The notes under the pieces were generated by a model. That model saw nothing but the letters and a program-made list of their open reading frames with translations. It did not search any database and was not told the DNA's origin. From Tetradesmus obliquus (Eukaryota; Chlorophyta; Chlorophyceae; Sphaeropleales; Scenedesmaceae): a stretch of DNA of 64,000 bases. The position numbers and the translations under genes were made by a program. Every line of letters begins with the position of its first letter. Position 1 is the stretch's first letter. Location of the stretch: NCBI GenBank assembly GCA_030272155.1, contig CP126206.1:62001-126000 (forward strand), in the 5' to 3' direction. Positions 688 to 63,992 of the stretch are shown here, piece after piece.

Positions 688-929
688 GGACAACTCGTTC
701 GATGGTGAGGCCGACCTGAGCCACGCCAAGGACGTGAACGCTGCCGCTGCCGCTGCCGCCAAATCAGATAATGACATTTTTGCTTCTGTTGACTCATTTG
801 TGCTGCAGGGACAACTCTTTCGGTGGTGAGGCCGACCTGAGCCACGCCAAGAACGTGAACGCTGCCGCTGCCGCTGCCGCCAAATCAGATAATGGCATTT
901 TTGCTTCTGTTAACTCATTTGTGCTGCAG
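688..929 (+). repeat. Two acceptor-side copies of the first aconitase exon
   Basis: The acceptor plus exon 5' part (reading [17 protein letters not shown]) occurs at 688-744 and 809-865, before the intact exon at 930, at an exact 121-bp spacing. Each truncated copy breaks off into CCGCTGCCGC sequence just before the point where the intact exon continues with GAGGTCTACTCC. Each keeps a CTGCAG acceptor. Confidence 0.9.
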
Positions 930-3900
930 GGACAACTCTTTCGGTGGTGAGGCCGACCTGAGCCACGCCAAGAACGTGAACGCTGAGGTCTACTCCTTCC
1001 TGGCCAGCGCCGGCGCCAAGTACGGCGTGGGCTTCTGGAAGCCGGGCAGCGGCATCATCCACCAGGTGATTGTCATTTCAATGTTATTGTGTTATAATGT
1101 CATGTGCATTGTTTGGTTCGGCGCCAAGTACGGCGTGAGCTTCTGGAAGCCGGGCAGCGGCGTCATCCACCAGGTGATTGTCATTTCAATGTTATTGTGT
1201 TATGTCGTCATGTGCATTGTGTGGTTTGGCGCCAAGTACGGCGTGGGCTTCTGGAAGCCGGGCAGCGGCATCATCCACCAGGTGATTGTCATTTCAATGT
1301 TATTGTGTTATAATGTCATGTGCATTGTTTGATTTGGCGCCAAGTACGGCGTGGGCTTCTGGAAGCCGGGCAGCGGCGTCATCCACCAGGTGATTGTCAT
1401 TTCAATGTTATTGTGTTATAATGTCATGTGCATTGTTTGTTTTGGCGCCAAGTACGCCGTGGGCTTCTGGAAGCCGGGCAGCGGCGTCATCCACCAGGTG
1501 ATTGTCATTTCAATGTTATTGTGTCATAAGGTCATGTGCATTGTTTGGTTTGGCCAAGTACGGCGTGGGCTTCTGGAGGCCGGGCAGCGGCGTCATCCAC
1601 CAGGTGAATGTCATTTCAATGTTATTGTGTTATGACGCCATGTGCATTGTTTGTTTTGGCGCCAAGTACGGCGTGGGCTTCTGGAAGCCGGGCAGCGGCG
1701 TCATCCACCAGGTGATCGTCATTTCAATGTTATTGTGTTATAATGTCATGTGCATTGTTTGGTTTGGCGCCAAGTACGGCGTGGGCTTCTGGAAGCCAGG
1801 CAGCGGCGTCATCCACCAGGTGATCAGCACTACAATGATGATAATATGTACCATCTTTATCACTGGATGCTCGACGACCTGCGGCAGGTTGCTTCCGCCT
1901 GAATGACTGCTGCCTGAATGACTGCTTTGACAGCTTGCTTGGCAGCCAGCGGCAGGCTGATGCTGTTCTGCTTTCTGCATGCTTGCCGAATGAACTGCTT
2001 GGCGGTGGGGCAGCTGAGGGCTACAGCACACGGCACTGCGTGTTACTGCTGGGGTGGTGTGCGCAAGGCCCCTGCGGCAGCTGCTGCATCAGTGGGGCAG
2101 CTGTGGCAGCAGCTGCAGCGGCGCAGGGGCAGCAGCCAGCGATCAACGCAAATATTTGAATTACAACTGCTCCTGCCTGCTAAAACCTGAACCTTGCAGA
2201 TCGTGCTTGAGAACTACGCCTTCCCTGGCGGCATGATGATCGGCACAGACTCCCACACGCCCAACGCCGGTGGGCTGGGCATGTGTGCGGTGGGCGTGGG
2301 CGGCGCTGACGCTGTTGACGTGATGGCTGGCCTGCCCTGGGAGCTCAAGGCGCCCAAGGTCATCGGCGTGAAGCTGACAGGCAAGATGAGCAAGTGGACC
2401 TCCCCCAAGGACGTCATCCTCAAGGTGGGTGACGCCGCACACATACACATGGCTGTTGCTTGTGCGCTGTTGTGTTTTGGACCTAGGTTCAGGTGTTGCA
2501 AGGGCTGCAACAGGCCGGGTGGGCAGGCAGGGGTTTCGGCAGGGTTTGGCTGTGGCTGGACGTGATGGCCGGCCTGCCCTGGGAGCTGAAGGCCCCTGAA
2601 GGTCATCGGCGTGAAGCTCACTGGCAAGATGAGCAAGTGCACCTCCCCAAAGGACGTCATCCTCAAGGTGGGGTGACACCACACACATACACATGGCTAC
2701 TGGTGTTGTGTAGTTGTGTTTGGGACCCAGGTTGAGGGTTTCCAGGGGCTGTGGCAGGCCGGGGTGGGCAGGGGTTTTGGCAGGGTTTGGCTGTTGACGT
2801 GACGGCTGGCCTGCCCTGGGAGCTCAAGGCGCCCAAGGTCATCGGCGTGAAGCTGACAGGCAAGATGAGCAATTGGACCTCCCCCAAGGACGTCATCCTC
2901 AAGGTGGGGCGGTTTAGGGGGGTTGCCTGTTGAGGGCTGCGGCTTTAGGGCTGTTGTTTGCGGCCTGGGTTGTGGCAGGGGGCAGGCAGTGTGCAAGCTG
3001 CTTAAGTGGACCATCCCCTAGGACGTCAACCTGAAGGCAGGGCGGCTGTGTGGTTGTTGTGTACGCATGTGTGCTGTAGTTGGGTGTGGTTGCACGTGTA
3101 GGTTGTTTGCGTACACCTGCTCACACCCGAGTATGGCAAGTATGCGTACACAACACAACCACACAGCTGCCCCACCTTGTGTGTGCGTGTCGTGACCAGG
3201 CAGCAGCAGCAGCTGCCGTTGACATGCTTATCTTTGTGTGTGCATGTTGTCCGATGTGTTAGTGCTATGAGCACAGCGTGGCAACCTGCATCAGCAAGGC
3301 TTGGCATGCCATTGTGCATTTGGCCGGCCATTGGCAGGCTTGGCAGGCCACTTGCATCAGCAAGGCTGGCAAGCCATTTGGCATTTGGCAGGCCGTTGGC
3401 TGGCCATTTGGCACCAGCAGGGCTTGGCAGGCCGCGCGAGCGTTGCCCTCTGTCTGGCTTCCCTAGAGCAGCAGCAGTGCCGCAGCACGGCTGTGGCGTG
3501 GCCAGGCTGTCTCAAACAAAGTTTGTTTTCTTAGCCCTTCAAGCCTCTGAATTGAGGCGGCTGGGATGTTAATTGTTTTCATCCAGCGTTTGGGTGGTCT
3601 CGTGCTCAGCACCAGCCACGCCACGGCTATGCAGCGCCTACGCAGGCATCCACACGTTAACACGTTGAAGGGCGGGATGTGTTACTGCTGTGGGCACAGC
3701 GTGGCATCCTGCATCAGCATGGCTTGGCAGGCAGCAAGGCACGCAGCCTGTGTATGGATTCCCTGCAGCAGCAGTGCCGCAGCATGGCTGTGGCTTGGTT
3801 GGTCGTCTCGAACAAAGTTTGCCACAGCACTCCCCAAGCCACGGCTATGCAGCGCCAGGCGTCTAGCAGGCAGCAAGTGCTGCATGCACACGCTGCTATC

Positions 3901-4169
3901 CTCAGGCAGTTGTGGACGCTTGCTGCTGCCGCGGCTGCTGCTGCTACTTATAAGATAAACTGCTGGCATCCTGACCATGAAGGGCGGCACCGGCGCCTTC
4001 GTTGAGTACTCTTGGCCCATCAAGCCGTGACATGGCTCTGCTGCTGCTGCTGCCCTGCTGCTGCTGCTGCTGTTGCTGTTCTCATTTCAGGTTGCGGGCA
4101 TCCTGCCCGTGAAGGGCGGCACTGGTGCCATCGTGGAGTCCCCTTTGGCTCATCAAGCCCTCACATGAC

Positions 4170-4202
<33 letters not shown>

Positions 4203-5246
4203 TTAAATCAGGTTGCTGGCATCCTGACCGTGAAGGGCGGCACTGGCGCCATCGTGGAGTACTTTGGCGAGGGCGTGGACAACATGAGCTGCACAGGCAT
4301 GGCCACCATCTGCAACATGGGCGCGGAGATTGGCGCCACAACTTCCATGTTCCCCTACAACAAGTGAGTATTCCTTGTTTATTTGTTTTGTGGTATATGT
4401 TTGTTGATTATTGTGTTCAAGCACTCGGCATGGCCACCATCTGCAACATGGGCGCGGAGATTGGTGCCACCGCCTCCATGTCCCCCTACAACAAGTGAGT
4501 GGTTTCTGATTTGTTGTGTTGGTATGCATTGTTGTCTGTGCGGTTGAATGCAACACAAGGCTGCCACCAGTTGCAACATGGGCGCAGAAATTGGCGCCAC
4601 CACCCCCATGTTCCTTCACAACACGTGAGCTGCGGTTGGTTATATCGTTCTTGGTCTGTGTTTTGTTTGAATTTGTCTGTCTCTTCGTGTGATTGGTGGG
4701 TGGTATGCATCAAGCATGGCCACCATCTGCAACATGGGTGCGGAGATCGGTGCCACCACCTCCATGTTCCCCTTCAACAAGTGAGTGGGGTGTTACATGG
4801 TGTGGTGTATAGCCAGGTGTCCTCGTCCTCGCTACAAACCACAACATGTAATACCTCACTCACAACCGAGACATATTCAATGCCACCATCTGCATCATAG
4901 GGTCCGAGATCAGTGCAACCGCTAGTTTGTCCCCCCATATGCCCCTACAACCAGTGAGCGTGCTAGGTGTGGTGCAGCACGGGAGACGCATTGGACGCTT
5001 TGGTTTGGCTGTATGGCTGTATGGCTGGCTGCTGGTTTGTTCACCAGTTTGTACTGGGCCCGTGCTGCATGTTGAGCTGCTGCAGCTGCATGCTTCCTGG
5101 GCTACAGCAGCTGCAGTTTGCCTGCGTATGGCTGCAGATGTGATTCACCAGCCGTGCCCCTGCTCCGGCGTGCAGGCGCCTGCATGATGAAATAGTGGCC
5201 GCCGGCTCCGCTGCTGTGAAACATGCGCAACAGTTGCACTAACACC

Positions 5247-5291
<45 letters not shown>

Positions 5292-8200
5292 GCCCCCTGC
5301 AGGCGCATGCACGACTACCTGGTGGCCACGGGCCGCGGCGGAGCAGCAGCGCTTGCAGACGCATTCAAGTGAGCGGGGCCTCAGTCGCACGCCAGCCAGC
5401 GGTAGTGGCAGTGGCGACAGCAGCAACGACCCTGTTTCCACAGCAGCGTTGCTGCTGCAGCAGCAGCAACAGCTTTGTAGCTGCAGCAGCATTACAGCGG
5501 CTGCAGCAGTACACCAGTGCTTGGCGCAGCAGTTGGCACAGTAGGTGCTCAGGGACGGCGGCAAGGTGTGGGCAGCGGTGCGTGCTGCTGTGCTCCTGCT
5601 GCCCAGCTGCTGCTGCATGCCTGGCACCTCGCTGCGTTGCCCGCATGTGTGATATCGTGCTCTCTTAAACCCTTGCAGGGAGAACCTGCAGGCTGATGCT
5701 GGTGCGTAGTACGACCACCGAATTCAGATCGACCCCTCTTGAAACATCGTGTAATGCAGGGAGAACCTGCAGGCTGACGCGGGCAGAGTACGGCCAGCTG
5801 ATCGAGATCGACTACATCACCTCACTGCCCGCTCAACCCTGTGCCTCACTGTTTTTCCGTCTTCCCCTTTCTGTGCCTCACAGGGAGAACCTGCAGGCTG
5901 ATGCGGGCGCCGAGTACGACCAGCTGATCGAGATCGACCTCAACTCCCTGGAGCCGCACGTCAACGGGCCCTTCACGCCCGACCTGGCGCACCCACTGTC
6001 CAAGTTTGCGGACGCCATCCGCGCCAATGGCTGGCCCAGCGAGCTCAAGGTGCGTGTGTGCGTGTGCGATAGGCGAGCAACATTTGTGTGCGGTTGTTGA
6101 CTTTTTGTGTGAAAGTGGAAGCGTGCAGTGTGGCTTGTTGACGCATTACCGGCCCTTCACGCCCGACCTCGCGCACCCGCTGTCCCAAGTGAGTTCACGG
6201 ACGCCATCCGCGCCAACGGCTGGCCCAGCGAGCTCAAGGTGTGCGTGCGATAGACAAGCAACATGTGTGTGCAGTTGTTGACATTTTGTGTGTGTGGAAG
6301 CTCGCAGTTTGGCTGTTGACGCAGTACGGGCCCTTCACGCCCGACCTGGCGCACCCGCTGTCCAAGTTTGCTGATGCCATCCGCGCCAGCGTCTGGCCCA
6401 GCGAGCTCAAGATGTGTAGGCGGCTGTAGCGGCTCTGTTGTTATATGTGGCTGTGGCATTGTGCATGATTTGTGTGTGGGGACAGTGGCTGTCCCAGTTT
6501 GCGGACGCCATCCGCGCCAACGGCTGGCCCAGCGAGCTCAAGGTGCGCGGCTGGCGATATTGTTGGCTGAATGTATGCCCGTGTGTTGTGTAGTTGGTTG
6601 GCTTGTTGACGCATTACTGGCCCTTCACGCCTGACCAGGCGCACCTGCTGTCCCAAATGAATTCGCGGACGCGATCAGGGCCAACGGCTGGCCCAGCGAG
6701 CTCAAGGTGCGTGTTAACACACAAACAAACATGCGTGGGTTTGTTGTGCGGCTTCGTGCTCGCTATCTGTGTTCGAGTAGCAGCGGGCAGCTTGGCTTGA
6801 GTGATGTCAACAGCCCTTCACGCCCTGTTGTGCCGCCTTGTGCCCTCAAACCGTGGACTGTGTGCCTGACTCCTTTCCAGGCTGGCCTTATCGGCTCCTG
6901 CACCAACTCTTCTTACGAGGACATGCAGCGCGCTGCCTTGTGCTTCCCTGCAGCCCCAAACCCTGAATTTCTGTGTTTGTTTTTGTGTCTGTTTTGCCTT
7001 CCACAGGCTGGCCTCATCGGCTCCTGCACCAACTCTTCTTACGAGGACATGCAGCGCGCTGCCAGCGTGGCGCGCCAGGCGCTCAAGGCCGGCATCAAGT
7101 CCAAGGTGCCCTTCACCATCACTCCTGGCAGCGAGCAGATCAGGGCCACCATCGAGCGCGATGGCCTCATGGAGGTGTTCACACAGGTGCGCTTTATGTG
7201 TTGCATTCTTTTAAAGGCGTGTTGTGGTTTTTAGTGTTTTTTCGGCTGGTTGATGAGTGCCCAGTTGCGTGCTTAATGCTGCAAGCATCAAGTGCCCTTC
7301 ACCATCACCCCCGGCAGCAAGCAGATCCGCGCCACGATCGAGCGCGACGGGCTCGTGGAGGTGTTCACACAGGTATGCCGCTGTCTCTGCGAAGTACTGG
7401 TTACGGGGCGTGGTGTGTGTTTGGATGAGGTTGTTTGGGTTTGAACGGCCTTGTGGCGGGATGGGAGGCATCCAACACTTCCTATCTGACCGATGCTGCC
7501 GCTGCTGCTGCTGCCGTTTCTTCTGTTCCCCATCATCCTTGCAGGTGGGTGGCACTGTCCTGGCCAACGCTTGCGGCCCCTGCATCGGGCAGTGGAAGCG
7601 CACCGACGTGGCCAAGGGCGAGGCCAACAGCATCATCAGCTCCTACAACAGGAACTTTGCCGCGCGCAACGACGGCAACCCCGCCACGCACGCGTTCGTG
7701 GCCAGCCCTGAGATCGTGACCGCCATGGTCATCGCAGGTGCGTGGTGTTCAGGATTTGGGCTTGTGGTGTGTGACATCTGGTTGTGTGCAAGGCCCTGCC
7801 AGCAACCCCGCCACGCATGCGCATTTTTGTGGCCACCCCAGAGTTTGTTGCTGCAATGGTAACGGCAGTGCGGCGTGGCAATGGCTTTAGGGTCAAGTTG
7901 GAGTACCTTGTGGCGATGGGGGTCTGGGTGTTGGGTGTTATGATACTAAACCCTTGCTGTCTGCCTGCCATCAAACCCTGCAGGCAACCTTCAACCCTGA
8001 GAAGGACACCCTGGTGTGCGCTGACGGCAAGGAGATCAGCCTTGACCCTTGGGTTGCAAGCACTTCAACAACTAAACCCTCGCTGCCTGTCTGCTGTTGA
8101 ACCCCGCCCCGCACTCCTAAAACCCTGCAGGCGACCTCACCTTCAACCCCGAGAAGGACACCCTGGTGGGCGCTGACGGCAAGGAGATCAGCCTGGACAG

Positions 8201-9908
8201 CCCCTTTGGTGACGAGCTGCCAGCAGCAGGCTTCGACCCAGGCATGGACACCTACCAGGCACCACCAGAGCCCGCCAGCCGCAGCCGCGTGCAGGTGCGA
8301 TTTAGGCACGCATTGCTTGGTGCATGTTGCTTTGTTGTTGTTGTATGCGACTGCTGTTACTTGACTTGGTGTGTTGGTGTGTTGGTGATGAGCTGCCAGC
8401 AGCGGGCTTTGACCCAGGCATGGACACCTACCAGGCACCACCATAGCCCGCCAGCCGCAGCCGCGTGCAGGTTCGATTTGTTGCTTTCCGCGCACAGGTT
8501 GTTTTTTATTGCTGGTTTGCTTGCTGGTTCAAGGAGCTGGTGAGTGCCATGTGTGTGGTGTGGTGTAGTGTGGCAGGCAGGCACAGTCGTGTGGTGGCTT
8601 GAGTGCGGGCTGCAGCTGCAGGACGTGTGCAATGCGGTGGGCTTTGACCCGGGCATGGGCACCTACCAGGCACCACCAGAGCCAGCCAGCCGCAGCCGCG
8701 TGAGGTGATTGCAGCGCTCAGGGCTTGTTGCATGTTGTTTTGGCACGTGTGCTTGTTGTGGAACAATCCTGTGATGGGCAGGACATAACTGACGCCCCAC
8801 ATTGTCTATCAGTTTCACCTCAACACCTGCTGCTGCTGCCACCACAGGTTGACGTGGCGCCCAGTAGCAACCGGCTGCAGCTGCTGGAGCCCTTCAAGGC
8901 CTGGGACGGCGGCGACCTCTTTGGTGCCCCCAACCCTTCAAACTCAAAACCCTCGAAACCTGCCTGCTAAACCTTTTGCTGCCCTCTAAACCCTGTGGCG
9001 CAGGTTGACGTGGCGCCCAGCAGCAACCGGGTGCAGCTGCTGGAGCCCTTCAAGGCATGCGACGGCGGCGACATCACTGACGCTGCCATCCTGATCAAAA
9101 CCCTTCAACCCTGCTTGCTAAACCCTTGGCTGCCCTCTAAACCCTGTGCTGCAGTTTGACGTGGCGCCCAGCAGCAACCGGCTGCAGCTGCTTGAGCCCT
9201 TCAAGGCCTGGGACGGCGGCGACATCACTGGCGCCCCCAACCCTTCAAACTCAAAACACTCAAACCCTTTATTAAAACCTGTGCTGCAGGTTGATGTGGC
9301 GCCCAGCAGCAACCGGCTGCAGCTGCTGGAGCCCTTCAAGGCCTGGGACGGTGGCGACATCACTGACGCTGCCATCCTGATTAAGGCCAAGGGCAAGTGC
9401 ACCACAGACCACATCAGCATGGCCGGGCCATGGCTCAAGTACCGCGGGCACCTGGACAACATCTCCAACAACATGCTCATCGGTGAGTGAAGGGGGGACT
9501 GTCACAGGCAGCAGCAGCAGCAGCGGAGCAGCAGCAGCGGAGCAGCAGCAGCGGAGCAGCAGCAGCGGAGCAGCCTGGCTCATCGGTGATGACTGGTCAT
9601 CTGTTGTAGTAGCAGTGGCAGCAGCAGCGGCAGCAGTGCACCAAGGCAAGGGGCACATGCAACACATCCACACCCACTTGTGCATTGGCGAGGAGCTGGG
9701 GCTGCTAGCTTGCGCTGCAGCAGGATTTAGCAGCAGCAGTACAGCAGCAGGATTGTGGTGCTGCCTGCATAGAAGCGCTTCAGCAGCAGCAGCAGCAGCA
9801 TTGGGTCAGGGGCGGGCAGCTGTTTGCTGGGACATTTGCAGACGCCTCACATGTCCTGGGTGCTGCCTCTCCTTGTCCTGTCACTGAACTGCTGCTGCTG
9901 CTGCCACC

Positions 9909-9946
<38 letters not shown>

Positions 9947-10857
9947 AGGCGCGGTCAACGCCGCCAACGAGAAGGTCAACGCCGTGGTCAACGTGCTGAC
10001 CGGGGAGGAGGACGCGGTGCCAGCCACGGCACGCTACTACAAGGCCAAGGGACTGCCCTGGGTGGTGGTCGGTGAGTGGCATAGGAGGTTGAGGGTTAAA
10101 GCATAAGAATGCTTTTTACATTTGGTGTCAAGCAAAGACATTTGCAAAGTGCAATGCAGGATGTTCATGTTTATTTTTGTGTTCACTTCATCTGGTGTTG
10201 TACTGTGTTGCGTTGTTGGGAGGGCTGGCCTGCTGCAAGGCCAAACCTGCCTTAGGTCGAGGTCCTTGAGTGACATTTTTGGGGGAATTGCAGCAAAAGC
10301 AAAGAGCAGGTGGATCCTGAGTGGGGCCTGGGTGGCCGTGAGGCAGTGACTGTTGTGCTGCTGCTTCCTGCCTGCTTGCTGCTTCGGTCGCCGGCACCAA
10401 CTTGCTTGTCAACATGTGTGCGCAATTGAGACCAGCTCTGGCCTGCGTCCCCCTGGCCATCCTCCGTTTGATGTTGTGCTGTGCCCAGGTGACGAGAACT
10501 ACGCCACGCTGGAGCCGCGCCACCTGCGCGGCGCCGCCATCATGATGCGCCGTGTCTGTCTGATGCCATCATGATGCGCCGTGTCTGTCTGATGCCATCA
10601 TGATGCGCCGTGTCTGTCTGTGTTTCACCCAACTTGTCTGCACACCCCACACAAAATCTTCCTCTGCAGGGCAACAGTAGGCAATGGCCCCCCAACAGGC
10701 TGCCTAGTTGCTCACACGGCTGCAACTGCTTGCCTACCTGCGCCCTGGGCACACAACAACTGCAGGCGATGAGAACTACGGCGAGGGCAGCAGCCGCGCT
10801 GGTGCCTGCCAGCATATCCATGCTGCTGCCTGCCGTCCTCGTAACTCATCCTGTGAT

Positions 10858-10891
<34 letters not shown>

Positions 10892-12017
10892 TGCAGGTGA
10901 CGAGAACTACGGCGAGGGCAGCAGCCGCGAGCACGCCGCGCTGGAGCCGCGCCACCTGGGCGGCGCCGCCATCATCGTCAAGAGCTTCGCGCGCATCCAC
11001 GAGACCAACCTGAAGAAGCAGGGCATGCTGCCGCTGACCTTCGCTGATCCGGCTGATTACGACAAGATCGACTCCACTGACAGGCTGTCCATCCTGGGCC
11101 TGGCTGGCCTGGCGCCCGGCAAGCAGCTGACCATCCAGGTGGGCATGTTGAATTTGCTTCGGTTGGGAGTGCCAGGCCCGGGGGGGAAGGGGGGTGAGCG
11201 TGGTGTGCTGCATGAGAGGGGTGCTGGAGGCGTGTTGCATGCCAGCAGCGCTGTGTGGCAGCTGCCCATTTAGTCGGATTGGGGAGGGGGGGGGGGGTGC
11301 AGGGCTGGTGTGTTGCAGTGCTGCCGCGCTGCATATGTGGAGGTGGGTGCAGGGGGTGTGCAGCTGCCTATGGCTGCATCTGAGCCTGGCGTGGGCTTGT
11401 CTGTGCAGTATGTGTGTGTGGAGGGGTGGCAGGCGGCACCCTGCAGCTGGGAGTGTTGCTTGGTTGCATTGGCTTCTCCCTGTGGCTTGGAGGCTTGGAC
11501 GCTGTCTCCCTTGTGCGTGCTGCTATCTGCTATCTCTTGCTGTTTTCGCTGCTGGGCACGCGCAAACGCTCCACGCATGATATATCGCTGGCGATCCACA
11601 CTATGCAATGAGTGCACCCTTTCACCTGCGTGTGCTGCCCGATGTGTTCGTTGTTTGCGGCAGGGCAAGCGCAAGCGCAAGGACGCTTTACCTCTGAGTG
11701 TAATGTGAAACCAGACGTCGCGGCAAGTGCACTTCTCACCTGTCTTTTTGCTCTGTCATCTATGTTGTGCTGCAGGGCAAGCGCAAGGACGGCTCTACGT
11801 ACGAGTTCATGGTGAACCAGACCTCTAACAAGCACACCAGCTCACTTGTTTGTGCTGCCTGCTGCCTGTTTGTTTTCTGTACCTGCAGGGCAAGCGCAAG
11901 GACGGCTCTACGTATGAGTTCAAGGTGAACCAGACCTTCAACGAGAACCAGATCTCATGGTTCAAGGCCGGCAGCGCACTCAACGCCATGGCAGCAGCAT
12001 TCGCAGCCAAGAAGTGA
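930..12017 (+). CDS. ACH1: Aconitate hydratase, mitochondrial type (5' partial, 12 exons in window)
   Basis: Aconitase interconverts citrate and isocitrate in the TCA cycle, using a [4Fe-4S] cluster. Exons with continuous phase: 930-1065, 2200-2424, 4212-4363, 5303-5368, 5884-6049, 7007-7186, 7545-7737, 8131-8294, 9290-9482, 9949-10071, 10897-11138, 11889-12017 (TGA 12015-12017), giving about 655 residues. Family landmarks in order: [50 protein letters not shown] (cluster Cys), [10 protein letters not shown] (two cluster Cys), [31 protein letters not shown], and [10 protein letters not shown] near the end. The order and the swivel domain match the mitochondrial (yeast Aco1) subfamily rather than the cytosolic/IRP type. 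The N-terminal third and transit peptide are outside the window. Nearly every exon is flanked by truncated duplicate copies (listed separately). Product certain; symbol follows the Chlamydomonas name. Confidence 0.96.
1013..1819 (+). repeat. Eight-copy 108-bp donor array (exon 3' end + intron start)
   Basis: The exon 3' end encoding [19 protein letters not shown] and the next ~55 bp of intron are repeated eight times. The spacing is 108 bp throughout apart from a 2-bp deletion in the sixth copy. Equivalent GTGATT/GTGAAT donors sit at 1066, 1174, 1282, 1390, 1498, 1604, 1712 and 1820. The copies lack an upstream acceptor. An in-frame TGA at about 1330 stops read-through. The true next exon begins at 2200. 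Confidence 0.95.
2559..3036 (+). repeat. Three donor-side copies of the second aconitase exon
   Basis: Copies of the exon 3' end ([24 protein letters not shown]) lie at 2559-2667, 2790-2903 and, much shortened, 2994-3036, downstream of the intact exon 2200-2424. The first carries a one-base insertion (frameshift) and the last an in-frame TAG. The first two keep a GTGGGG donor. Confidence 0.88.
3257..3900 (+). repeat. Diverged tandem duplication inside an aconitase intron
   Basis: Three ordered blocks of the stretch 3257-3640 recur at 3676-3865: a GCACAGCGTGGCA block, a GCAGTGCCGCAGCA..GGCTGTGGC block ending at AACAAAGTTT, and a CCACGGCTATGCAGCGCC block. This is non-coding intron between the second and third aconitase exons. 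Duplication is therefore not confined to exon boundaries, although boundary copies are better preserved. Confidence 0.7.
3958..4141 (+). repeat. Two acceptor-side copies of the third aconitase exon
   Basis: Truncated copies of the exon 5' part ([16 protein letters not shown]) occur at 3958-4013 and 4091-4141, before the intact exon 4212-4363. Both break into a TTGGC(C/T)CATCAAGCC tail followed by CTG repeats. The second has a normal TTTCAG acceptor; the first has lost it. Confidence 0.85.
4421..4955 (+). repeat. Four donor-side copies of the third aconitase exon
   Basis: Copies of the exon 3' end ([20 protein letters not shown]) lie at about 4421-4495, 4560-4624, 4715-4782 and 4880-4955, each followed by a GTGAGT or GTGAGC donor. 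Coding content decays with distance; the last copy reads [12 protein letters not shown]. The intact exon ends at 4363. Confidence 0.88.
5170..5215 (+). repeat. Decayed acceptor-side copy of the fourth aconitase exon
   Basis: The sequence after the GTGCAG acceptor here matches the start of the 5303-5368 exon ([13 protein letters not shown]) with several substitutions, including an in-frame TAG. It is followed by the (CTG)n tract that forms the 3' end of the intron before the intact exon. Confidence 0.7.
5679..5815 (+). repeat. Two acceptor-side copies of the fifth aconitase exon
   Basis: Copies of the exon start ([18 protein letters not shown]) sit at 5679-5735 (with an in-frame TAG) and 5760-5815, before the intact exon 5884-6049. 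Each keeps the TGCAG acceptor. Confidence 0.88.
6149..6705 (+). repeat. Four donor-side copies of the fifth aconitase exon
   Basis: Copies of the exon 3' end ([28 protein letters not shown], here given only as landmark) occur at 6149-6238, 6326-6411, 6488-6542 and 6616-6705. Three of the four retain a GTGCG/GTGTG donor and one has AT in place of GT (position 6412). The first and last copies contain frame-breaking changes within the LSQ/FAD stretch. Confidence 0.88.
6881..7371 (+). repeat. Acceptor-side and donor-side copies around the SCTNSS exon
   Basis: The exon carrying the first cluster cysteine (7007-7186) is preceded by a truncated acceptor-side copy (6881-6935, through MQRAA). It is followed by a donor-side copy (7285-7371, [25 protein letters not shown] with a GTATGC donor). 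Only the central copy is complete. Confidence 0.88.
7791..8050 (+). repeat. Donor-side copy of the seventh and acceptor-side copy of the eighth aconitase exon
   Basis: 7791-7869 is a decayed copy of the 3' end of exon 7545-7737 ([16 protein letters not shown]). 7984-8050 is an acceptor-side copy of exon 8131-8294 ([19 protein letters not shown]) with an intact CTGCAG acceptor. Both lie in the same intron. Confidence 0.82.
8389..8706 (+). repeat. Two donor-side copies of the eighth aconitase exon
   Basis: Copies of [25 protein letters not shown] (landmark [11 protein letters not shown]) at 8389-8471, with an in-frame TAG in place of GAG, and at 8625-8706. The intact exon ends at 8294. Confidence 0.86.
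8848..9235 (+). repeat. Three acceptor-side copies of the ninth aconitase exon
   Basis: Copies of [23 protein letters not shown] begin at 8848, 9004 and 9155, before the intact exon at 9290-9482. Two break into a GCCCCCAACCCTTCAAACTCAAAAC tail, so intron and exon segments were duplicated together. The acceptors are CAG, except the third, where the exon starts TTT instead of GTT. Confidence 0.9.
10489..10800 (+). repeat. Acceptor-side copies of the DENYGEGSS exon plus a 29-bp triplication
   Basis: A rearranged copy at 10489-10553 joins [16 protein letters not shown] directly, lacking the GEGSSREHA segment. It runs into three copies of a 29-bp unit (ATGATGCGCCGTGTCTGTCT...) ending near 10621. 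A second short copy lies at 10766-10800. The intact exon is 10897-11138. Confidence 0.85.
11664..11827 (+). repeat. Two acceptor-side copies of the last aconitase exon
   Basis: Copies of [16 protein letters not shown] occur at 11664-11716 (decayed) and 11776-11827 (nearly intact, FMVNQTSN), before the terminal exon 11889-12017. Each has a GGCAG/TGCAG acceptor. Confidence 0.88.
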
Positions 12018-14997: not shown

Positions 14998-15925
14998 GCA
15001 GCAGGTACAGCCACAATCAAGCCCTTTGAGGCGTGCTGGGACATCAGCAACACATGCATTCTGATGGCTGCCTGCTGCCGCTGCTGCCTGCAGGGGTGTA
15101 TGTGCTGGACGAGCCACCCCCCAAGCCCTCCCCAGCGCCCGTTGCCCCCACTGCTGCTGCTGCCAACGCCACCGGCCCTGTTGCACCCACACCAGGCAAG
15201 AACCTCATGGTGAGGCGGCGTGCTGTGTTTGCAGGCGAGTGTGTTCCTTCTGTGACTCAGTAGCTGCGGTGTTCCTTGGCACGAACCTCTTGTCACGGCC
15301 GCGTGGTACTTGAAGCGAGTGTGTCGCGTGTGGTGCTGCAAACGTGTGGCTGAGTAGCTGCGGAAGTCATTGGTGAGAACTTCATGGTGAGGCAGCGTGC
15401 TGTGTCTGGTATTGTGGGCGGCAGTGGGTCAGCTGTGGTTTGGCGCTTGAGGGCAACAGAAAGCTGTGCCTGGGTGATGCTGTGTCTGCTGCTTGCTGGG
15501 GGTCAGCCTGGCATCCTCACCCGGCAAAAACCTCATGGTGAGGCTGGTGGGTTGTGCATCGGCTGCTGACAGCAACCTGCTGACAACAGCTGCATCTCTC
15601 AGCAGACTCTGCAGTGTGCCGGCACAACAGCAACAGGTGTGCGGCATACCGGCAGCACTGCTGCAGCACTGTTCGGCCACCACCCAGCCAGCTGAAAAGT
15701 GCTGCGCACCACAATCCTTGGGCAGGGGGTGTGCCTGCAAGCGCTGGCTGGCTGGCAGCCCTGCCCAGGAGATGCACAAACCCAGGGTGCACCTCTGTGA
15801 AAACATCATGCCGCTGTTTCTTCTGCTGCTGCTGCTGCTGCCGCCGCCAGGTGGCAATGACAGTGATGGGCCAGGATACGGGAGAGATCTACAAGCAACA
15901 AGAGGGCGCATACCTTTATGAATTC

Positions 15926-15961
<36 letters not shown>

Positions 15962-16181
15962 GCCGCCAGCTGGCAATGACAGTGATGGGCCAGGATGCGG
16001 GAGAGATCTACAAGCAACAAGGCGCATACCTTTATGAATTCTCTGCTGCTGCTGCGGCTGCTGCTGCTGCTGCGGCTGCTGCTGCTGCTGCTGCTGTTGC
16101 TGCCAGGTGGTGATGACTGTCATGGGCCAAGATGCGGGTGAGATATACAAGAACCAGGGCGCACCTATCTCAAAAACCCTG

Positions 16182-16221
<40 letters not shown>

Positions 16222-52666: not shown

Positions 52667-53575
52667 TCGCTTAAAACCTGCCTTTCACAATGTTTTTACA
52701 GCGCCAGGTTATGCATGGGCACAGCGCATGGAGATCCAGGCACAGCAGGTCCTCCGCTTCGAGCTGCGAATGAGGCTGCAACGTATATGTTCGTGGCAAA
52801 ACGGTCAATGTAGAAAAGATGGGAATGTGAGAAGGCAGCTTACAGACATGCAGCAAAGAAGGACGGCAGCACTAGTGCAGCGGACCCCAGCAGTGCAACT
52901 TGGCTACACATGTCCAGGCAAAATAAATTCTTGCTACAAACGCTCAAAACCCATGCGACTTCACATGCACTGTGGTTTTCGCGCTTGAAGAGGCAAGATG
53001 TAACAGGGATGTTCACCATGAAGTAACCCCCTTTGAAAATACACAACAGTTGGGCACGCCATGCATGCTGCCACAGATCTGCACCTGTACAGATATGCCT
53101 GGGACTGCATCTATTCCACAAACAGCGCTGCACATGACACTTGGTGCCCAGTGAGCGCATCAACACGCAGCCAGCAACCCAGAGCCTGGCAGGGCCCCTG
53201 CGGCCTGCGGTCGGGCCACTGTGCCAGTACCATTGTGCTGCTGGCTGGTGAACTTCCAGTGTGAGAATGCCTGTTGCAGCGATGCTCAGTGCGCAATTCG
53301 TATGGGGAAAATAATTCACCTCAAACACAGTGGCAGGCTGTGCCTTACAGAACTGCATGGAGGATGCTTTCAACCAGACTGCAGGTCACCCCCAGCCACA
53401 ACTGCAGGACAGACATATTGCAGCCACGCCACGCCGGCAATGCCACCCTGGCTATGCCCAGGCGCAATCCTATGGCAGCCCACAAAGCCAGGTGCAGTGG
53501 CTGAGACACGCGCCATGAAATGCCTCTGAACTCAATGATACAAGTGGGGGCTGCGCCCTTTCACCTTCCACTTCA
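50037..53575. repeat. Segmental duplication, right copy
   Basis: Direct repeat of 41876-45645, about 8.1 kb away. Its upstream part (52667-53575) has one notable deletion relative to the other copy, near 53395, where the segment between CTGCAGGTCAC and ATTGCAGCCACG is shorter. After 53575 the two loci diverge completely. Confidence 0.9.
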
Positions 53576-53850: not shown

Positions 53851-53929
53851 ATGCCAACTGCACCACACGGTTCATGAATTCACGATGTTCACACGTCTGC
53901 TGTTGACATGTCTGCTGTTCACATCATGA

Positions 53930-54024
53930 AGATGCCAGGCGGCGGGCCCTCGCCGCTGCCGTTGTCGCACACGCTGCTCTTCCAGCGCAGCCCGTCGAGC
54001 TCGTACTTGAGCTTGCTGCCCAGC
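53930..54024 (-). repeat. Copy of the 3' coding end of the TLDc gene
   Basis: Downstream of the TLDc stop (54192), the last exon's 3' part is repeated (KLKYELDGLRWKSSVCD.GSGEGPPPGIF), including its own in-frame stop just after. It parallels the duplicated C-terminal segment of the glycoprotein gene. Confidence 0.85.
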
Positions 54025-54191
54025 GGCATGCTGCCCGCCAGGCACACTCCTTGCTATTCTCAAGAACACCAGCACCAGACTGTTGCTGCTGCTGCTCACA
54101 GATGGGCTGCACCAGCCGCGCCTCACGCCGCCGCAAATGATATTGTTGCTGCCCCGGCAACTCCGCGGCCGTACGGGGTGACGTCTGCTGT

Positions 54192-57100
54192 TCACATCGT
54201 GAAGATGCCGGGCGGCGGCCCCTCGCCGCTGCCGTCGTCGCACACACTGCTCTTCCAGCGCAGCCCGTCAAGCTCGTACTTGAGCTTGCCGCCCTTGCGC
54301 ACAAACACGCGCAGCTCCACAAGCTCAGTCTTTGTTGCGGACTCAACTGCAGCCGGCAACGCAGCAGCAGCAGGCGCATGCAGCGCAGCAACAAGTCAGA
54401 TCAAGTGAGCTTGCCGCCCTTGCGCACGTACACGCGCAACTCCGCGAACTCGCTTTTAGTGGCAGACTCGGCTGCAGCCGGCAACGCAGCAGCAGCAGGC
54501 GCATGCAGCACAGCAGTGACTCAGATCAATGTTTTGAGCTTGCCGCCCTTGCGCACGAACACGCGCAGCTCAACAAGCTCCGTCTCGGTGGCGGACTCGG
54601 CTGCAGCAAGGGCAGCAGCAGGGTGCATGCAGCGCAGCAGTGAGTAACATCAAGTGAGCTTGCCGCCTTTGCGCACGTACGCCCGCAACTCCACGAGCTC
54701 AGCCTTGGTTGCAGGCTCGGCTGCAGCAGAGGGCAGCACAGCACAGCAATAGGGCAGCATGCCAGCCAGCAGCAGTGTCAAAGACTTGCAGGGCTTGCCG
54801 CAACAGCTGCTACGACGCGGCTCGCAGGCGGCTGCAGCCGGCGACCCCGTGGCGTGGGGCTGGGGGCGTCCATACCCTGCCTGATGTGGAGTCGCATGCA
54901 TGCAGCCTGCACTAGAGCCCCATGGCGTAACGTGCAGCTTAATCACGGCACATGTTTGGCGGCAGTGGGGCACCTGCGCGCACCTGCTGTGTTGAAGAGC
55001 GACTTGCCGCCGCCTGGCAGCCGTTGGTAGTCGATCAGCTTGCATGTGGCGCGCGTGGGGCTGCCTGCATGCGTGACAGCCAAACACACACGACAATGTT
55101 CCTACTTATTGTGACAGAGGAAGTTACATGTGGGTCCCGGCACCATCTTGCTATGGCTGAATTTGTAGTTTGGTGATGATGACAGCAGTGAGGTGGCTGT
55201 CCCTTACACCACCACCCCTACACAAGTAGCGTCTGTAGGGCTGCCTGCGGATGCTGGGCAGGGCATGCACTGTGGTGGTGGTGGTGTAAGGGACAGGTGG
55301 TGTAGGGGTGGCTTCTACATAAGCAGTGTGTGTAGGGCTGCCTGCGGATGGGGCCAGGGCATGCAGTACGGCGCAGTGTCAGTGCTTGGCATGTGGGAGC
55401 ACAGCACATGTTGTTGCAGAGTGGCACAGCACATGTTGTTGCAGAGTGGCACAGCACATGTTGTTGCAGAGTGGCACAGCACATGTTGTTGCAGAGTGGC
55501 ACAGCACATGTTGTTGCAGAGTGGCACAGCACATGTTGTTGCAGAGTGGCACAGCACATGTTGTTGCAGAGTGGCACAGCACATGTTGTTGCAGAGTGGC
55601 ACAGCACATGTTGTTGCAGAGTGGCACAGCACATGTTGTTGCAGAGTGGCACAGCACATGTTGTTGCAGAGTGGCACGCGTGGGGCTGCCTGCGGATGGG
55701 GCCAGGACATGCACGCAGCGCAGCGTCAGTGCTTGGCATGTGGGGGCACAGCACATGTTGTGGTACGCGCGGGGCTGCCTGTCGGTGATGGGAGCCATCA
55801 AAAAGTGTGGCGGGGCATGCAGGCAGCACGAGCCGCTCTGCCCCATCCATCCTGCGACTGCAGTGCCCACACTACACACTGCATCATCTGACACGTGTGT
55901 GTCTGCACTAGCTGGATGCACGGTGCTGTACGCGGTAATGGCCCTGGTGATCGATCAGCTTGCAGGTGGCACGCGTGGGGCTGCCTGCAGGCGTGACAGC
56001 CAAACAGCAGTGAGGCGGCTGTCGCCCTTCACCACCACTCCTTCACCACCACAGCTACACCACCACCAACGCAGTGAGGCAGCAGGCCCCCTTCCACACA
56101 AGGCTGCAGGCTTTACACGCATGCTGCCAGCGCGCCTCACCTCTCTGCAGCTGCATCTTCAAGTCCCCTGGCCCAAACTGGATGCCGTTGCCCAGGCCAT
56201 CCACAACAGCCATCTGGTCTGTTGCAATTTTGGGCAACTTGTGTGGCAGTTGGCTCATGTCTCCGTCAGGCCAGCTGAACAGGAAGGAGCCCAGCGTGGC
56301 CTTGGGGCCTGCAGCAGCAGCAGCAGCAGCAGCAACAGAAGTAGGCGGTTGGGTGCTGTGAGCATGACCACAGCCTGGCGGCATTCCATACATTGTGTGT
56401 GCACAGCTGCAGCCTTGGGCCCTGCGGAAGCAGGCGGTGCCGTGCTGCGAGCATAGAAACAGCCTAGCAAGCAGACATTGTTTGGCAGACAAGGACAGCT
56501 GCAGGCAGCCCTGGACTGATGAAGGAGACTTGGCATCTGCCCGCGTTAGGCAGCAACGGCGCTGCTGCTGCTGTCATCCACGGCCCAGCAGCACCTCCAG
56601 CTGGCCTGCTGCTGGCCTGACGCTGCAGCACCTCCAACGTGCCTGATGCTGGCCTGATGCTGCTGCACTGACACATGCACACGTGGAGCAGCTGCGCCAG
56701 TGGCATGCTAGCTGCGCAGCCCACAATGATATCCAGCTGCTGCTGCTGCTGCTGCAAGGAGCAGGCCTGCTCAAAGCAGCTCACCGTAGCCGTCAAAGCC
56801 CAGCGGGTTGTAGCCGCCCAGCACAGCGCCGCCCTGCACAGCCGCGCGGGGAGATGCACCAGGAACAATAAGAACAGATCATAAAGATCACAAAGTATCA
56901 GGCGTAGGCGCACCCATATGGCAGCCAATGCGCTCAGCGGTTGCAGACAACAGCCCAGCACACAGCGTTGCCCTGCACAGTCACGCAGAGAGATGCATCC
57001 GGAACAATCAGAAAAGGTCACAATGTATCAGGCGCAGGCGCACCCATATGGCAGCCAGTGCTGCTCAGGGGTTGCAGGACAACTGCCAAGCACACAGCGC

Positions 57101-60100
57101 CGCCCTGCACAGCCGCACGGAGAGATGCATCAGGAACAATCAGAAAAGGTCACAATGTATCAGGCGCAGGCGCAGCCATATGGCAGCCAGTGCTGCTCAG
57201 CGGTTGCAGGACACTTCCAATGACAGCGCCGCCCTGCACAGGCCAAGTGCACAGGAAAGTATGATACAGGTGTGCTCCCTTCTGTTGCCGCTCCATTGGG
57301 GCGCGGGGCCGATGACGTTGATGCTATGGCTTGATGGGTAACATGATGATGATGAGGTGTGCTGACATGGCGACCACACAGGCTTGCAGGCCGTTGTTGT
57401 GGAGCTGCGACTGCTGCTTCCGCCAACCTTGATGGTATCGCCAAGTACGCTGTAGTGCAAAACGCGCCGGCACGTGCCTCAACGGCCTGTTATTCCACTG
57501 CGCATCTGTGTACTTGACCTTTACTCTGCAGCCCAGACACATATGTATCTGCAACCTGCGGATTATGAGGCAACCATGAGACATGTCAAACACAGAAGCT
57601 ACTTCGGGCCGTCGGGCCGTACGCTCAGCCAGGGCAGTTCCGCCATATCCACAAACTACAGCAGCAGCACTGTGCTGGCACCTCTGCCTCTGTGCCATGC
57701 CGCCATGCTGCATGTGTCGGTCGACAAACATCTTCCAGCGCTGACAAAGACAAGCAGCAAGCACGCACCACGCCAGCACGCACACACGCATGCAGCCATA
57801 TCAAGGCAAGAGCACCCACCTGAGTGCGGGCCACGCACAGTGCAGCCCCATATGTACCTGCAAACTTGCCAATGATGAGGCAGTTGAGGGACATGCAAGA
57901 CATGAAATGGAGAAGCTGCTTCAGACCAACCTGAGTGCGGGCCACGCACAGTGCAGCGCCATATCCATCCACTCTGTCGTGGAAGGTGTCTGGGTTCCAG
58001 CCATCTTCAGTGGCCGAGTAGGTGCAGCGCAGCGCCTCAGTCTCCAGCTGCGTGCCTGCAGCATGGCGGCATGACACAGAGGCAGAAACATTGATGCCAT
58101 GTGTATTTCCTGCATGTTTGACAAAAGAAGCGTAGGCGCAGCGCAACGCCTCAGACTGCAGCTGGGTGCCTGCAAGCTGGGCGGGGTGGGTGGGTGCGTG
58201 GGTGTTTGTGAGCGCATATCCATCCACTCTGTCATGTAATATGTCTGGGTTCCAGCCATCTTCAGTGGCGGAGTAGGCGCAGCGCAACGCCTGAGTCTCC
58301 AGCTGCGTGCCTGCAAGCGGTGTGGGGTGGGTGGGGGTGCAAATTCACAGCAATTTCAGATCCCCAATCACTGCTGGCAGCAGCAAGCAGGGCAGCTACA
58401 AATCCCTGCATGAGCTGATGCATCAGGCATTGATCCCATGTGTGTTTGCTGCAAGTTCCGACAAAAAAATGAGAGGCGCAGCGCAACGCCTCAGCCTCCA
58501 GCTGCGTGCCTGCAGCATGGCGGCATGGCACAGAGGCAGAGGCAGAGGCAGAAACATAGATGCCATGTGTGGTTTTTGCATGTTTGACAGTAGGCGCAGC
58601 GGAACGCCTCAGTCTCCAGCTGCGTGCCTGCAGCATGGCGGCATGACACAGAGGCAGAAACATTGATGCCATGTGTATTTCCTGCATGTTTGACAAAAGA
58701 AGCGTAGGCGCAGCGCAGCGCCTCAGCCTCCAGCTGGGTGACTGCAGGCGGGGTGGGTGGGGGCGCACAGTCGCAGCCATTCCATGAGCTGATGCGTCAC
58801 GCATCCATGCCATGTGTGTTTTTGCTGCATGTCTGACAGTAGGCGCAGCGCAGCGCAGCGCAGCGCCTCAGTCTCCAGCTGGGTGCCTGCAGCATGGCGG
58901 CATAGAACAGAGGCAGAGGCAGAAACACAGCGCTGCTGCCTTGAAACTTCGGCTGGGTGCCTGCAAGCGGGGTGGGTGGGTGGGTGGGGGCTGGGGGTGG
59001 CGGTGGGGGGGAATGCACAGCCATAGCAATTTCAGCAGCCTGCCCAATCACTGCTGCCAGCAAACAGGGCAGCCACAGCGCCATATCCATCCACTCTATC
59101 GTGGAATGTGTCTGGGTTCCAGCCATCTTCAGTGGCCAAGTAGGCGCAGCGCAACGCCTCAGCCTCCAGCTGCGTGCCTGGGTGCAGCATGGGCATGGCA
59201 CAGAGGCAGAGGCAGAAACATTGATGCCATGTGTACTTCCTGCATGTCTGACAAACAAAGAGTAGGAGCAGCGCCTCAGCCTCCAGCTGGGTGCCTGCAA
59301 GCGGGGTGAGTGGGGGTGCAAAATCGCAGCAATTGCATGAGCTGATGCATCACGCATGCGATGCCATGTGTGTGTGTGCTGCATGTTTAACAGTAGGCGC
59401 AGCGCAGCCCTCAGCCTCCAGCCGGGTGCCGCAAAAGGCAGCAAGCAGTGGTGTGCGCATGTGCGAGCGGGTAGGTGATGAGTGAGATGCTGAGTGAGAT
59501 GCTGAGTGAGATGCTGAGTGAGATGCTGAGTGAGATGATGAGTGAGATGCTGAGTGAGATGATGAGTGAGATGCTGAGTGAGATGCTGAGTGAGATGCTG
59601 AGTGAGATGATGAGTGAGATGCTGAGTGAGATGATGAGTGAGATGCTGAGTGAGATGCTGAGTGAGATGATGAGTGAGATGATGCGTGAGATGATGAGTG
59701 AGATGCTGAGTGAGATGCTGAGTGAGATGATGAGTGAGATGATGCGTGAGATGATGAGTGAGATGCAGGACACTGGCGGAGGTTGGCTACACGCTCAAGC
59801 AAGTGAGGCCAGGTGCGGCAGTCGCAGCACGCCAAACACACACCCTGCACATGAGCGGGTGTTTCATGCAGCGTGCATCTGAGCGTGCAGGCTGAGTATG
59901 TCGACATTTCGTACAAAGCAAGTGCCTGCAAAAGCATTAGACAGAGAGGTTGTTTCGTGGCAAGGAGGCTTGACAAGGCAGCAAAGTGTTGGTCCAGATT
60001 GTTGCGTGCAAGCAGCCCAGCCCACATTTGCAGGCATTGCGTGCAGCTGTGCCAGCAGTCCATCGGCCAGACAGCAGGCATCATGCAGGCAGCAGCAGTG

Positions 60101-62824: not shown

Positions 62825-63992
62825 CTGTGCTTGTGGTCTCAGCTGCAGCATTGCTTCTGCTGCTGTACAGCCTAGGCAGCTACACAAGTACACATCATGA
62901 TCAAACCCGTAGCGGGCGCATGCGCACTGCAATCACAGCTGGTGGGGGCCTGGGGCAGCAGCTGCAGGCTGAGCTGAGCAGAGGAGCTGCAGGGCAGCTG
63001 CAGCAGCACATCCTGGCACTGTCAAACATCAGCAGCTTGTCCACAGCACAGCTGCCGCTGCTGCTGCAAGGCACAAACCTGTCCTCGATAATCACGGCAG
63101 ATGTGCTGGACAGTGCTACAGCCAAGGGCCTTGGATGGCAGCAGCATTGGCAGCTGGTGCAACTGCACCAGCAGCTGCTGTGCACGTGAGTGGCGATTTG
63201 AGTTTGTAAACAGAGAGAGCAACACCAGCACCAGCAAGCTCATAGTCCAACTTTCAACGCATGCACCAAGGGTGCTGATAGTACATCAGCAAACACAGCA
63301 TGACAAGCAAGCTGCAGCAGCTTGCCTATATCAGGGCAAGCAAACTCTTATGTGTGCACGGATTGTGCCATGCAATGCGTGTGAGCGCTGTGTGCTCTTG
63401 AACAGCCCCCGGCAGCTGGCCCCTGCTGCATGCATCCTGTGCTCTTACCCAGCCCCCTGCATGCCATCAGCTGATGCGTGTAGTGCCGCTGATACTAGAC
63501 TAATCCTGCAGGCACGCAGCCAATGACTCTGTTGCATGTGCTGCGCTTACATGCTGTGTGTATGTGTGCTGACATGGATCTGTGCAGGTCTGGCTTGACT
63601 GCTGTGCACAACCCGCCTAATTCAGTGCCGGTAAGCACGGCAGAATGTAGCCCACAGCACCTGGCTATGATTCACAGCCTCCCAGTGTCACTTGCAGGAA
63701 GCAGGCAGAGCACAGGTTGTTGCATGCATGTGCCATGCAGGCATGCGCGTTTGAAATGCCAGGGACTGCTGAGTAGGCAACAAATGCAATGACCTGCATG
63801 TCATGCTGCTGCTGCTAGCTGCTGCTGCTGTGTGGCTGCGCATGCACTCTGTTTGCATAGGTCAGGCTGGGCAACTGCTCCGTGTTTGTGTACGCAGCGC
63901 ATGACTTTGTGTCACAGGAGCTGGCAGGGCCCCGCCACAGCTATGCATATGCCATGCAGGCATGCGCGTTTGAGATGCCACGGACTGCTTAG
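62825..63992 (+). CDS. Unidentified membrane-anchored protein (5' and 3' limits uncertain)
   Basis: Three exons join in phase: 62825-63185, 63588-63630 and 63861 to a possible stop TAG at 63990-63992. The first has a hydrophobic segment ([18 protein letters not shown]) followed by a basic stretch and a helical Gln/Leu-rich region with NIS and NLS glycosylation-type sites. That is the layout of a type II Golgi membrane protein. The third reads LGNCSVFVYAAHDFVSQELAGPRHSYAYAMQ (only part quoted). A GT47/exostosin-type glycosyltransferase is conceivable from the VFVY start, but no motif proves it. The start codon was not assigned and the gene may continue beyond the window. Confidence 0.45.
63709..63781 (+). 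repeat. Partial copy of the last visible exon
   Basis: Sequence after a CACAG acceptor-like site reads HACAMQACAFEMPGTAE and is followed by TAGTAGGCAAC-like DNA. It matches the 3' part of exon 63861 onward (YAMQACAFEMPRTA, 63951-64000), so boundary duplication continues in this fifth gene. Confidence 0.75.

What the first reader, a model, noticed from the sequence alone, without database searches (positions are those of the whole stretch)
688..63992. Exon-intron boundaries are tandemly duplicated in every multi-exon gene resolved here
Aconitase, the glycoprotein, the Myb gene, the TLDc gene and the last gene, on both strands and with unrelated functions, all carry truncated copies of their own exon ends. 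Acceptor plus exon-5' copies lie upstream of the intact exon; exon-3' plus donor copies lie downstream. In aconitase I count more than 30 such copies around 12 exons. Choosing the single full-length copy of each exon gives unbroken phase across the whole gene, so the loci look functional. Copies are diverged, which argues against a simple assembly error. I know of no described genome-wide process that multiplies splice junctions in this way; introner insertion differs because it adds introns, not exon pieces.
Basis: partly seen in the sequence, partly recalled or inferred. Interest (0 to 1): 0.92.

Follow-up and report, generated by a model that had tools for sequence, protein, structure and literature searches.

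The report
Exon-end copies filling algal introns
In this green alga (Tetradesmus obliquus) many introns hold truncated copies of the neighbouring exon ends, splice sites included; they look like short tandem duplications that gather at exon ends, mostly decay as junk, and sometimes appear in annotated proteins.

Summary
The genome is Tetradesmus obliquus. In aconitase, 10 of 12 exons have local copies: 37 matches, all on the predicted side (exon-5' copies upstream, exon-3' copies downstream). In 20 other 10-kb loci I found 104 such copies. 15 of 20 predicted genes with at least 8 true exons have a predicted decoy and 5 have none, so 'every gene' is too strong.

The copies evolve like non-coding DNA: 67 of 71 indels break the frame. 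Yet annotated proteins contain some: three aconitase decoys and one GSH1 decoy donor.

Best reading: short tandem duplications straddling an exon end are tolerated by splicing and then accumulate. Tolerance alone is not enough: arrays involve exon ends far more often than random tolerated placement gives (88 of 129, expected 24.9; aconitase 16 of 17, expected 3.9). Birth or retention must favour exon ends; I lean to retention. In 39 of 77 arrays no intron-side similarity is detected, which plain contiguous duplication does not predict. The nearest precedent I found is a single potato gene (PMC4974935, abstract).

The parts
930..1065 (+). aconitase, complete exon (first in window)
   Evidence: 655-residue chain identical to P0004
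624..864 (+). two upstream copies of acceptor plus 5' end of exon 930-1065
1119..1837 (+). seven downstream copies of 3' end plus donor of exon 930-1065, unit about 108 bp, intron part included
2200..2424 (+). aconitase, complete exon
2549..3037 (+). three downstream copies of 3' end of exon 2200-2424
4212..4363 (+). aconitase, complete exon
3921..4149 (+). two upstream copies of 5' end of exon 4212-4363
4427..4958 (+). four downstream copies of 3' end plus donor of exon 4212-4363
5303..5368 (+). aconitase, complete exon without a copy at the cut-off
5884..6049 (+). aconitase, complete exon
5676..5821 (+). two upstream copies of 5' end of exon 5884-6049
6148..6714 (+). four downstream copies (d1-d4) of 3' end of exon 5884-6049; d3 (about 6486-6542) is in annotated isoform P0002 and in OEZ85 P0003, d2 and d4 in P0001 (mapping of the inserts by eye)
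7007..7186 (+). aconitase, complete exon
6878..6937 (+). upstream copy of 5' end of exon 7007-7186, one difference in 57 exon bases
7292..7374 (+). downstream copy of 3' end of exon 7007-7186
7545..7737 (+). aconitase, complete exon
7802..7872 (+). downstream copy of 3' end of exon 7545-7737
8131..8294 (+). aconitase, complete exon
7973..8061 (+). upstream copy of 5' end of exon 8131-8294
8382..8742 (+). two downstream copies of 3' end plus donor of exon 8131-8294; the first has an in-frame stop
9290..9482 (+). aconitase, complete exon
8845..9242 (+). three upstream copies of acceptor plus 5' end of exon 9290-9482
9949..10071 (+). aconitase, complete exon without a copy at the cut-off
10897..11138 (+). 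aconitase, complete exon
10486..10798 (+). two upstream copies of the 5' part of exon 10897-11138
11889..12017 (+). aconitase, last exon to the stop in my chain
   Evidence: the annotated OEZ86 isoforms continue past this point, the OEZ85 ones end here
11622..11851 (+). two upstream copies of 5' end of exon 11889-12017
15851..16603 (+). second gene: predicted exon 16107-16388 with two upstream and one downstream copies
   Evidence: predicted exons
16916..17731 (+). second gene: predicted exon 17169-17306 with two upstream and two downstream copies
   Evidence: predicted exons
38741..39301 (-). predicted exon 38984-39301 with one copy of its 3' end (38741-38825)
   Evidence: predicted exon
53923..54718 (-). 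predicted exon 54196-54346 with one 3'-end copy and three 5'-end copies
   Evidence: predicted exon
57954..59429 (-). predicted exon 59052-59177 with copies of its 3' part (57954-58019, 58211-58274) and 5' end (59392-59429)
   Evidence: predicted exon

Best explanation
Short tandem duplications (mostly tens to a few hundred bp) keep arising in the genes of T. obliquus. One that straddles an exon end leaves one complete exon with its outer splice site and puts a truncated copy inside the intron: 5' copies upstream, 3' copies downstream. The gene survives because the complete exon, the only copy flanked by both sites, is still the one spliced (inferred). The copy then decays as non-coding DNA and is now and then spliced in. 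Exon-end copies outlast intron-only duplications; I infer a ratchet. A purely intronic repeat can collapse harmlessly by recombination between its copies, whereas collapse between the true exon end and a decayed decoy would graft the decoy's mutations onto the exon and is selected against, so exon-end arrays are trapped. Shown: anatomy, geometry, near-neutral decay, spread over the genome sample, enrichment at exon ends, presence in annotated proteins. Inferred: tandem duplication as the birth event of all arrays, exon definition, and the ratchet.
For: 37 of 37 aconitase matches lie on the side that tandem duplication requires; in random loci 34 down against 5 up for exon 3' ends and 21 up against 3 down for 5' ends. 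Direct, not inverted, local repeats. 38 of 77 arrays carry the intron side along, the youngest clearly as contiguous units (108-bp array). Gaps 4 of 71 multiples of three; 498 synonymous, 493 nonsynonymous, 12 stop differences fit a free copy and a constrained exon. Fillers single-copy in the genome (2 of 2). Enrichment at exon ends, weaker at >=95% identity. A toy calculation gives an enrichment that grows with age.
Against: 39 of 77 arrays show no detected intron-side similarity (8 of the 39 pass a more lenient test), and the share with intron similarity does not fall with age after the youngest class (6/8, 7/17, 14/27, 7/18, 4/7). The toy calculation reaches only 1.5-4.2-fold over all ages, less than observed. 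Exon ends are already over-represented among pairs >=95% identical (9 of 17, expected 4.0). Stops are fewer than expected (12 against 28).
Confidence: 0.45

Rival explanations
1. Junction-directed birth: breakage, repair or copying at exon-intron boundaries creates copies preferentially at splice junctions, often bounded by the splice-site consensus.
For: 16 of 17 aconitase arrays involve an exon end, expected 3.9. Mismatch between copy and exon is about 10% in the exon, 8-16% over the first five donor bases, 26% at the sixth, about 40% at the seventh; on the acceptor side it jumps from 8% to 38% just beyond CAG. L018 has 51 identical exon bases and aconitase exon 6 has 56 of 57, with no detected intron-side similarity. 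Exon-side copies have a matching intron side in 12 of 46, intron-side copies a matching exon side in 13 of 17 (random loci).
Against: 38 of 77 arrays do carry intron; no source was found for 2 of 2 fillers tested; decoy acceptor sides keep a pyrimidine-rich tract (C+T 0.62 against 0.52, n = 15), so they are not exon ends pasted into arbitrary intron; intron-only and intergenic arrays exist (28 and 13).
Confidence: 0.3
2. Old arrays kept alike by exchange: duplications are old, introns have diverged, and the exon parts are refreshed from the true exon by gene conversion or unequal crossover.
For: High exon identity beside unrelated introns; shared small insertion in decoys d1 and d4 of exon 5 although their introns differ.
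Against: Mismatches are spread almost evenly along the exon part (mean z for clustering 0.2-0.6 in 59 arrays) and do not rise towards the junction.
Confidence: 0.14
3. Functional decoys: copies are kept because they regulate splicing or supply alternative exons.
For: Annotated isoforms use decoys; d3 is annotated in two strains; stops 12 against 28 expected; third-position share of differences 0.57.
Against: 67 of 71 gaps break the frame and nonsynonymous changes are about as many as for neutral copies; 11 of 62 decoy donors and 4 of 37 decoy acceptors have lost GT or AG.
Confidence: 0.07
4. Assembly error: collapsed or misjoined reads made the copies.
For: None found; reads could not be inspected.
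Against: Copies are diverged and decoy d3 appears identically in the annotated protein of a second strain's assembly.
Confidence: 0.02

Closest known systems
Tandem duplication across an intron-exon boundary in the potato RdRp gene (PMC4974935; abstract read)
   Same: A tandem duplication crosses an intron-exon boundary and part of the duplicated exon becomes intronic; splicing signals are inherited from the parent junction.
   Different: One gene and one event, read as intron gain. Here many genes, many copies per exon, both exon ends, and no new intron is needed.
Intron creation by internal gene duplication and introns from tandem arrays (Gao and Lynch 2009; Zhuo et al. 2007; seen only as entries in the reference list of PMC3488318, content recalled)
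   Same: Tandem duplication inside genes absorbed by splicing.
   Different: Those models make a new intron inside an exon; here existing introns swell with truncated exon copies.
Tandem exon duplication with mutually exclusive exons (recalled)
   Same: Local copies of exons in introns.
   Different: Those are whole exons with both splice sites; each of the 37 aconitase matches covers only part of its exon.
Introners (recalled)
   Same: Genome-wide change of intron content in an alga.
   Different: Introners are dispersed families that add introns; the copies here come from the adjacent exon and 2 of 2 tested fillers are single-copy.

Membership tests
Junction-spanning tandem duplication (potato RdRp type) | Duplicated segment contains an exon end, its splice site and adjoining intron, in direct orientation next to the original | tested here: inconclusive
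   Exon end and direct local orientation met; adjoining intron detectably copied in 38 of 77 arrays, not detected in 39
Junction-spanning tandem duplication (potato RdRp type) | A new intron is created at the duplication | not tested
   No outgroup DNA was at hand to show intron gain; the reading here is growth of existing introns
Tandem exon duplication / mutually exclusive exons | Complete exon copies with both splice sites | tested here: not met
   37 of 37 aconitase matches are partial exons; some decoys are annotated as exons through another acceptor or donor
Introners | Similar sequences at many unrelated loci | tested here: not met
   2 of 2 fillers searched matched only themselves in the genome; the search skips simple repeats
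Assembly error | Copies identical, or absent from an independent assembly | tested here: not met
   Copies diverged 0-26%; decoy d3 present in the annotated protein of a second strain; raw reads not testable here

The most novel reading that the evidence does not exclude
Exon-intron junctions are targets of a duplication process in this alga: copies are born preferentially at splice sites and are often bounded by the splice-site consensus (donor hexamer, acceptor CAG), so that DNA breakage or copying is coupled to splice junctions across the genome.
Probability: 0.3. Interest if true: 0.92.

Novelty: new variant of a known kind. Interest (0 to 1): 0.72.

Why it matters
If the sample is representative (104 copies in 200 kb, extrapolates to roughly 50,000 in the genome), this is a concrete source of intron growth and of alternative exons, and a natural experiment on how a spliceosome picks the right site among many near-identical ones. 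It makes two questions testable with existing strain assemblies: whether duplications are born at splice junctions or only survive there, and how much cryptic splicing a genome tolerates. It also warns that automatic annotation of such genomes may absorb decoys, as in the annotated GSH1 protein.

Tried and rejected
Self-trained gene finder, first version, over-predicted tiny exons and was replaced. Intron hypermutation: rejected, because arrays with about 14% exon divergence can keep clearly homologous introns (for example L013 and L021). Origin from a diverged homolog or allele: not favoured, since the synonymous excess left after allowing for neutral copies is small (my arithmetic). Gene conversion: no clear mosaic. 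Exon ends pasted into arbitrary intron: decoy acceptor sides are pyrimidine-rich (introns without copies 0.51 at the matching distance). The C6 aconitase-family gene is too diverged to serve as outgroup. Literature: ten searches of the open library brought up, in the listings shown, no description of genome-wide exon-end copies. Passages only were seen of PMC12571836 and PMC7955037 (the word intron does not occur in either), PMC5966456 (T. obliquus mean intron 462 bp, 7.8 introns per gene; 12 of 17 places shown) and PMC3488318 (reference list hits). Subscription journals are not covered.
Full report
What was checked. The window is C16:62001-126000 of a 104.66-Mb, 17-contig genome. Its aconitase is annotated as OEZ86_010120 of Tetradesmus obliquus on a contig of 4,414,154 bases, the length of C16. 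Size and contig count fit GCA_030272155.1 in a table of PMC12571836 (passages). Joining one full-length copy of each of 12 exons gives 656 codons with one stop, the last; the 655 residues are 100% identical to the annotated P0004, which begins upstream of the window and, unlike the OEZ85 proteins, continues at its C-terminus past my stop. P0005, from a 2,624-base contig, encodes a near-identical chain uninterrupted and without decoys; since the gene spans over 11 kb I infer that it is a transcript.

The copies. Each exon with 80 bases of flank was compared with window 1-12600. Ten of 12 exons have local copies, 37 matches in all: 15 upstream, each of the exon's 5' part, and 22 downstream, each of its 3' part. 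The rule holds in 20 loci of 10 kb taken at fixed positions on all 17 contigs: of 217 exon 3' ends 34 have a copy downstream and 5 upstream; of 215 exon 5' ends 21 have one upstream and 3 downstream; minus-strand controls gave none. For these loci I used a gene finder that I wrote, trained starting from the aconitase gene. It finds all 12 aconitase exons, three of them with a different end, fuses neighbouring genes and calls some decoys exons, so exon labels outside aconitase are approximate. Pfam recognised the four predicted proteins sent (EFTUD2/GTP_EFTU, GCS2, Oxidored_FMN, UBA). A search on the expected side only found 34 copies in aconitase, 8 in the rest of the fused plus-strand model and 104 in the random loci, 93 of which run to within 6 bases of the exon end. 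Local direct repeats cover 16.8% of 264 kb, local inverted ones 0.5%; 15 of 20 random loci have direct ones. Of 20 predicted genes with at least 8 true exons, 15 have a predicted decoy and 5 have none.

Are the copies coding? Over copies that reach within 6 bases of the junction, differences from the true exon are 498 synonymous, 493 nonsynonymous and 12 stops, and 4 of 71 gaps are multiples of three. With the neutral spectrum computed there (0.303, 0.660, 0.037) the nonsynonymous changes imply about 750 changes in the copies, and the surplus of synonymous ones about 270 in the true exons: a ratio of 2.7, against 3.3 for a free copy and a fully constrained exon (my arithmetic; several decoys of one exon share changes, so the counts are not independent). 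Two signs go the other way: stops are fewer than the 28 expected, and the third-position share of differences is 0.57. Eleven of 62 decoy donors and 4 of 37 decoy acceptors have lost GT or AG.

Are they used? Three OEZ86_010120 proteins are on record. P0002 carries a 19-aa insert that I map by eye to decoy d3 of the exon 5884-6049, and so does P0003 of the second strain (OEZ85); P0001 carries 53 extra residues that map to decoys d2 and d4. For GSH1 (locus L013) the annotated OEZ86_012514 product P0121 runs through the true donor and uses the decoy's donor, adding 49 aa, while P0123 (OEZ85) and the Scenedesmus acutus protein P0122 do not. These are annotations; the reads behind them were not available.

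Is there a link to exon ends? Per 50-base probe, duplication looks similar everywhere in random loci: exon 3' ends 17.1%, exon 5' ends 11.2%, exon middles 9.4% (3 of 32), introns 9.8%, intergenic 10.9%. Per array, against random placement that already excludes exon-internal and whole-exon duplications, the picture changes: 74 junction-spanning, 14 exon-only, 28 intron-only and 13 intergenic arrays, expected 24.9 junction, 72.0 intron and 32.1 intergenic. Junction over intron-only is 7.7-fold; it is about 9-fold if exon-only arrays count as exon-end and intergenic ones as background (my arithmetic). An array counts as junction if any copy touches a true exon end. In aconitase, where exons are exact, 16 of 17 arrays involve an exon end and 1 is intron-only; expected 3.9 and 13.2. 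No pair lay wholly in the 35 kb called intergenic there, though 11.4% of it is covered by repeats that reach into predicted genes. Slower divergence of the constrained exon may account for about 1.5-fold (my estimate). Among pairs at least 95% identical the excess is smaller: 9 exon-end against 8 other arrays, expected 4.0 and 13.0. These are few, and the trend with age is only suggestive.

What plain tandem duplication does not explain. In a contiguous duplication the intron side is copied too. In 38 of 77 arrays it is, in 39 it is not detected; a more lenient test raises 8 of the 39. Pooled mismatch is about 10% in the exon, 8-16% over the first five donor bases, 26% at the sixth, about 40% at the seventh and about 50% from the twelfth; on the acceptor side it rises just beyond CAG (aconitase exon 1 left out). 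In L018, 51 exon bases are identical beside an unrelated intron side. Exon-side copies have a matching intron side in 12 of 46 cases, intron-side copies a matching exon side in 13 of 17 (random loci). Conversion is not supported, nor a mobile filler (2 of 2 single-copy), nor pasting into arbitrary intron.

Mechanism. I commit to tandem duplication filtered by splicing and selection, with retention biased to exon ends. The ratchet is an inference; a toy calculation yields an enrichment that grows with age, 1.5-4.2-fold over all ages for the contraction rates tried, less than observed, and the share of arrays with intron similarity does not fall with age beyond the youngest class, which the ratchet would predict if intron similarity offers a harmless way out. 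Junction-biased birth is the main rival, and the data at hand do not separate the two. That the complete exon wins because it alone has both sites (exon definition) is also inferred.

Known relatives. The potato RdRp case is one tandem duplication across an intron-exon boundary (PMC4974935, abstract). Ten searches of the open library showed no account of a genome-wide pattern in the listings I saw.

Noticed in passing
window about 41000-45200 and 50000-53500 (minus strand): Two similar genes rich in CTG repeats with similar flanks: a segmental gene duplication (by eye; predicted proteins alike).
   Followed up: no
window 30871-31295 and 31435-31859: A direct duplication, 100% identical over the 425 bases aligned, 564 bp apart, outside predicted genes: a very recent one.
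   Followed up: no
window 32107-32448: A perfect (GT)171 dinucleotide run of 342 bp.
   Followed up: no
window 254-430, 20834-21398, 34350-34683, 55399-55677: Minisatellites with units of 17, 24, 37 and 25 bp, nearly or fully perfect: active short tandem duplication outside the exon-end arrays.
   Followed up: no
window 22248-22813 and 22955-23394: Two arrays of about 144-bp units; by eye the second is the reverse complement of the first.
   Followed up: no
window about 19169-19218: A near-perfect palindrome (19-bp arms) inside one decoy copy of the second gene (by eye).
   Followed up: no
G000 C6:5018784-5023677: A second gene matching the aconitase family, too diverged from the mitochondrial aconitase to help.
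   Followed up: partly
L013 (GSH1) and P0121: The annotated OEZ86_012514 protein contains 49 extra residues from intron plus decoy, a probable splice variant or annotation error caused by a decoy donor.
   Followed up: partly
L024 4115-6039: A large array of about 345-bp units, 5.5 copies, in the span of a predicted gene.
   Followed up: no
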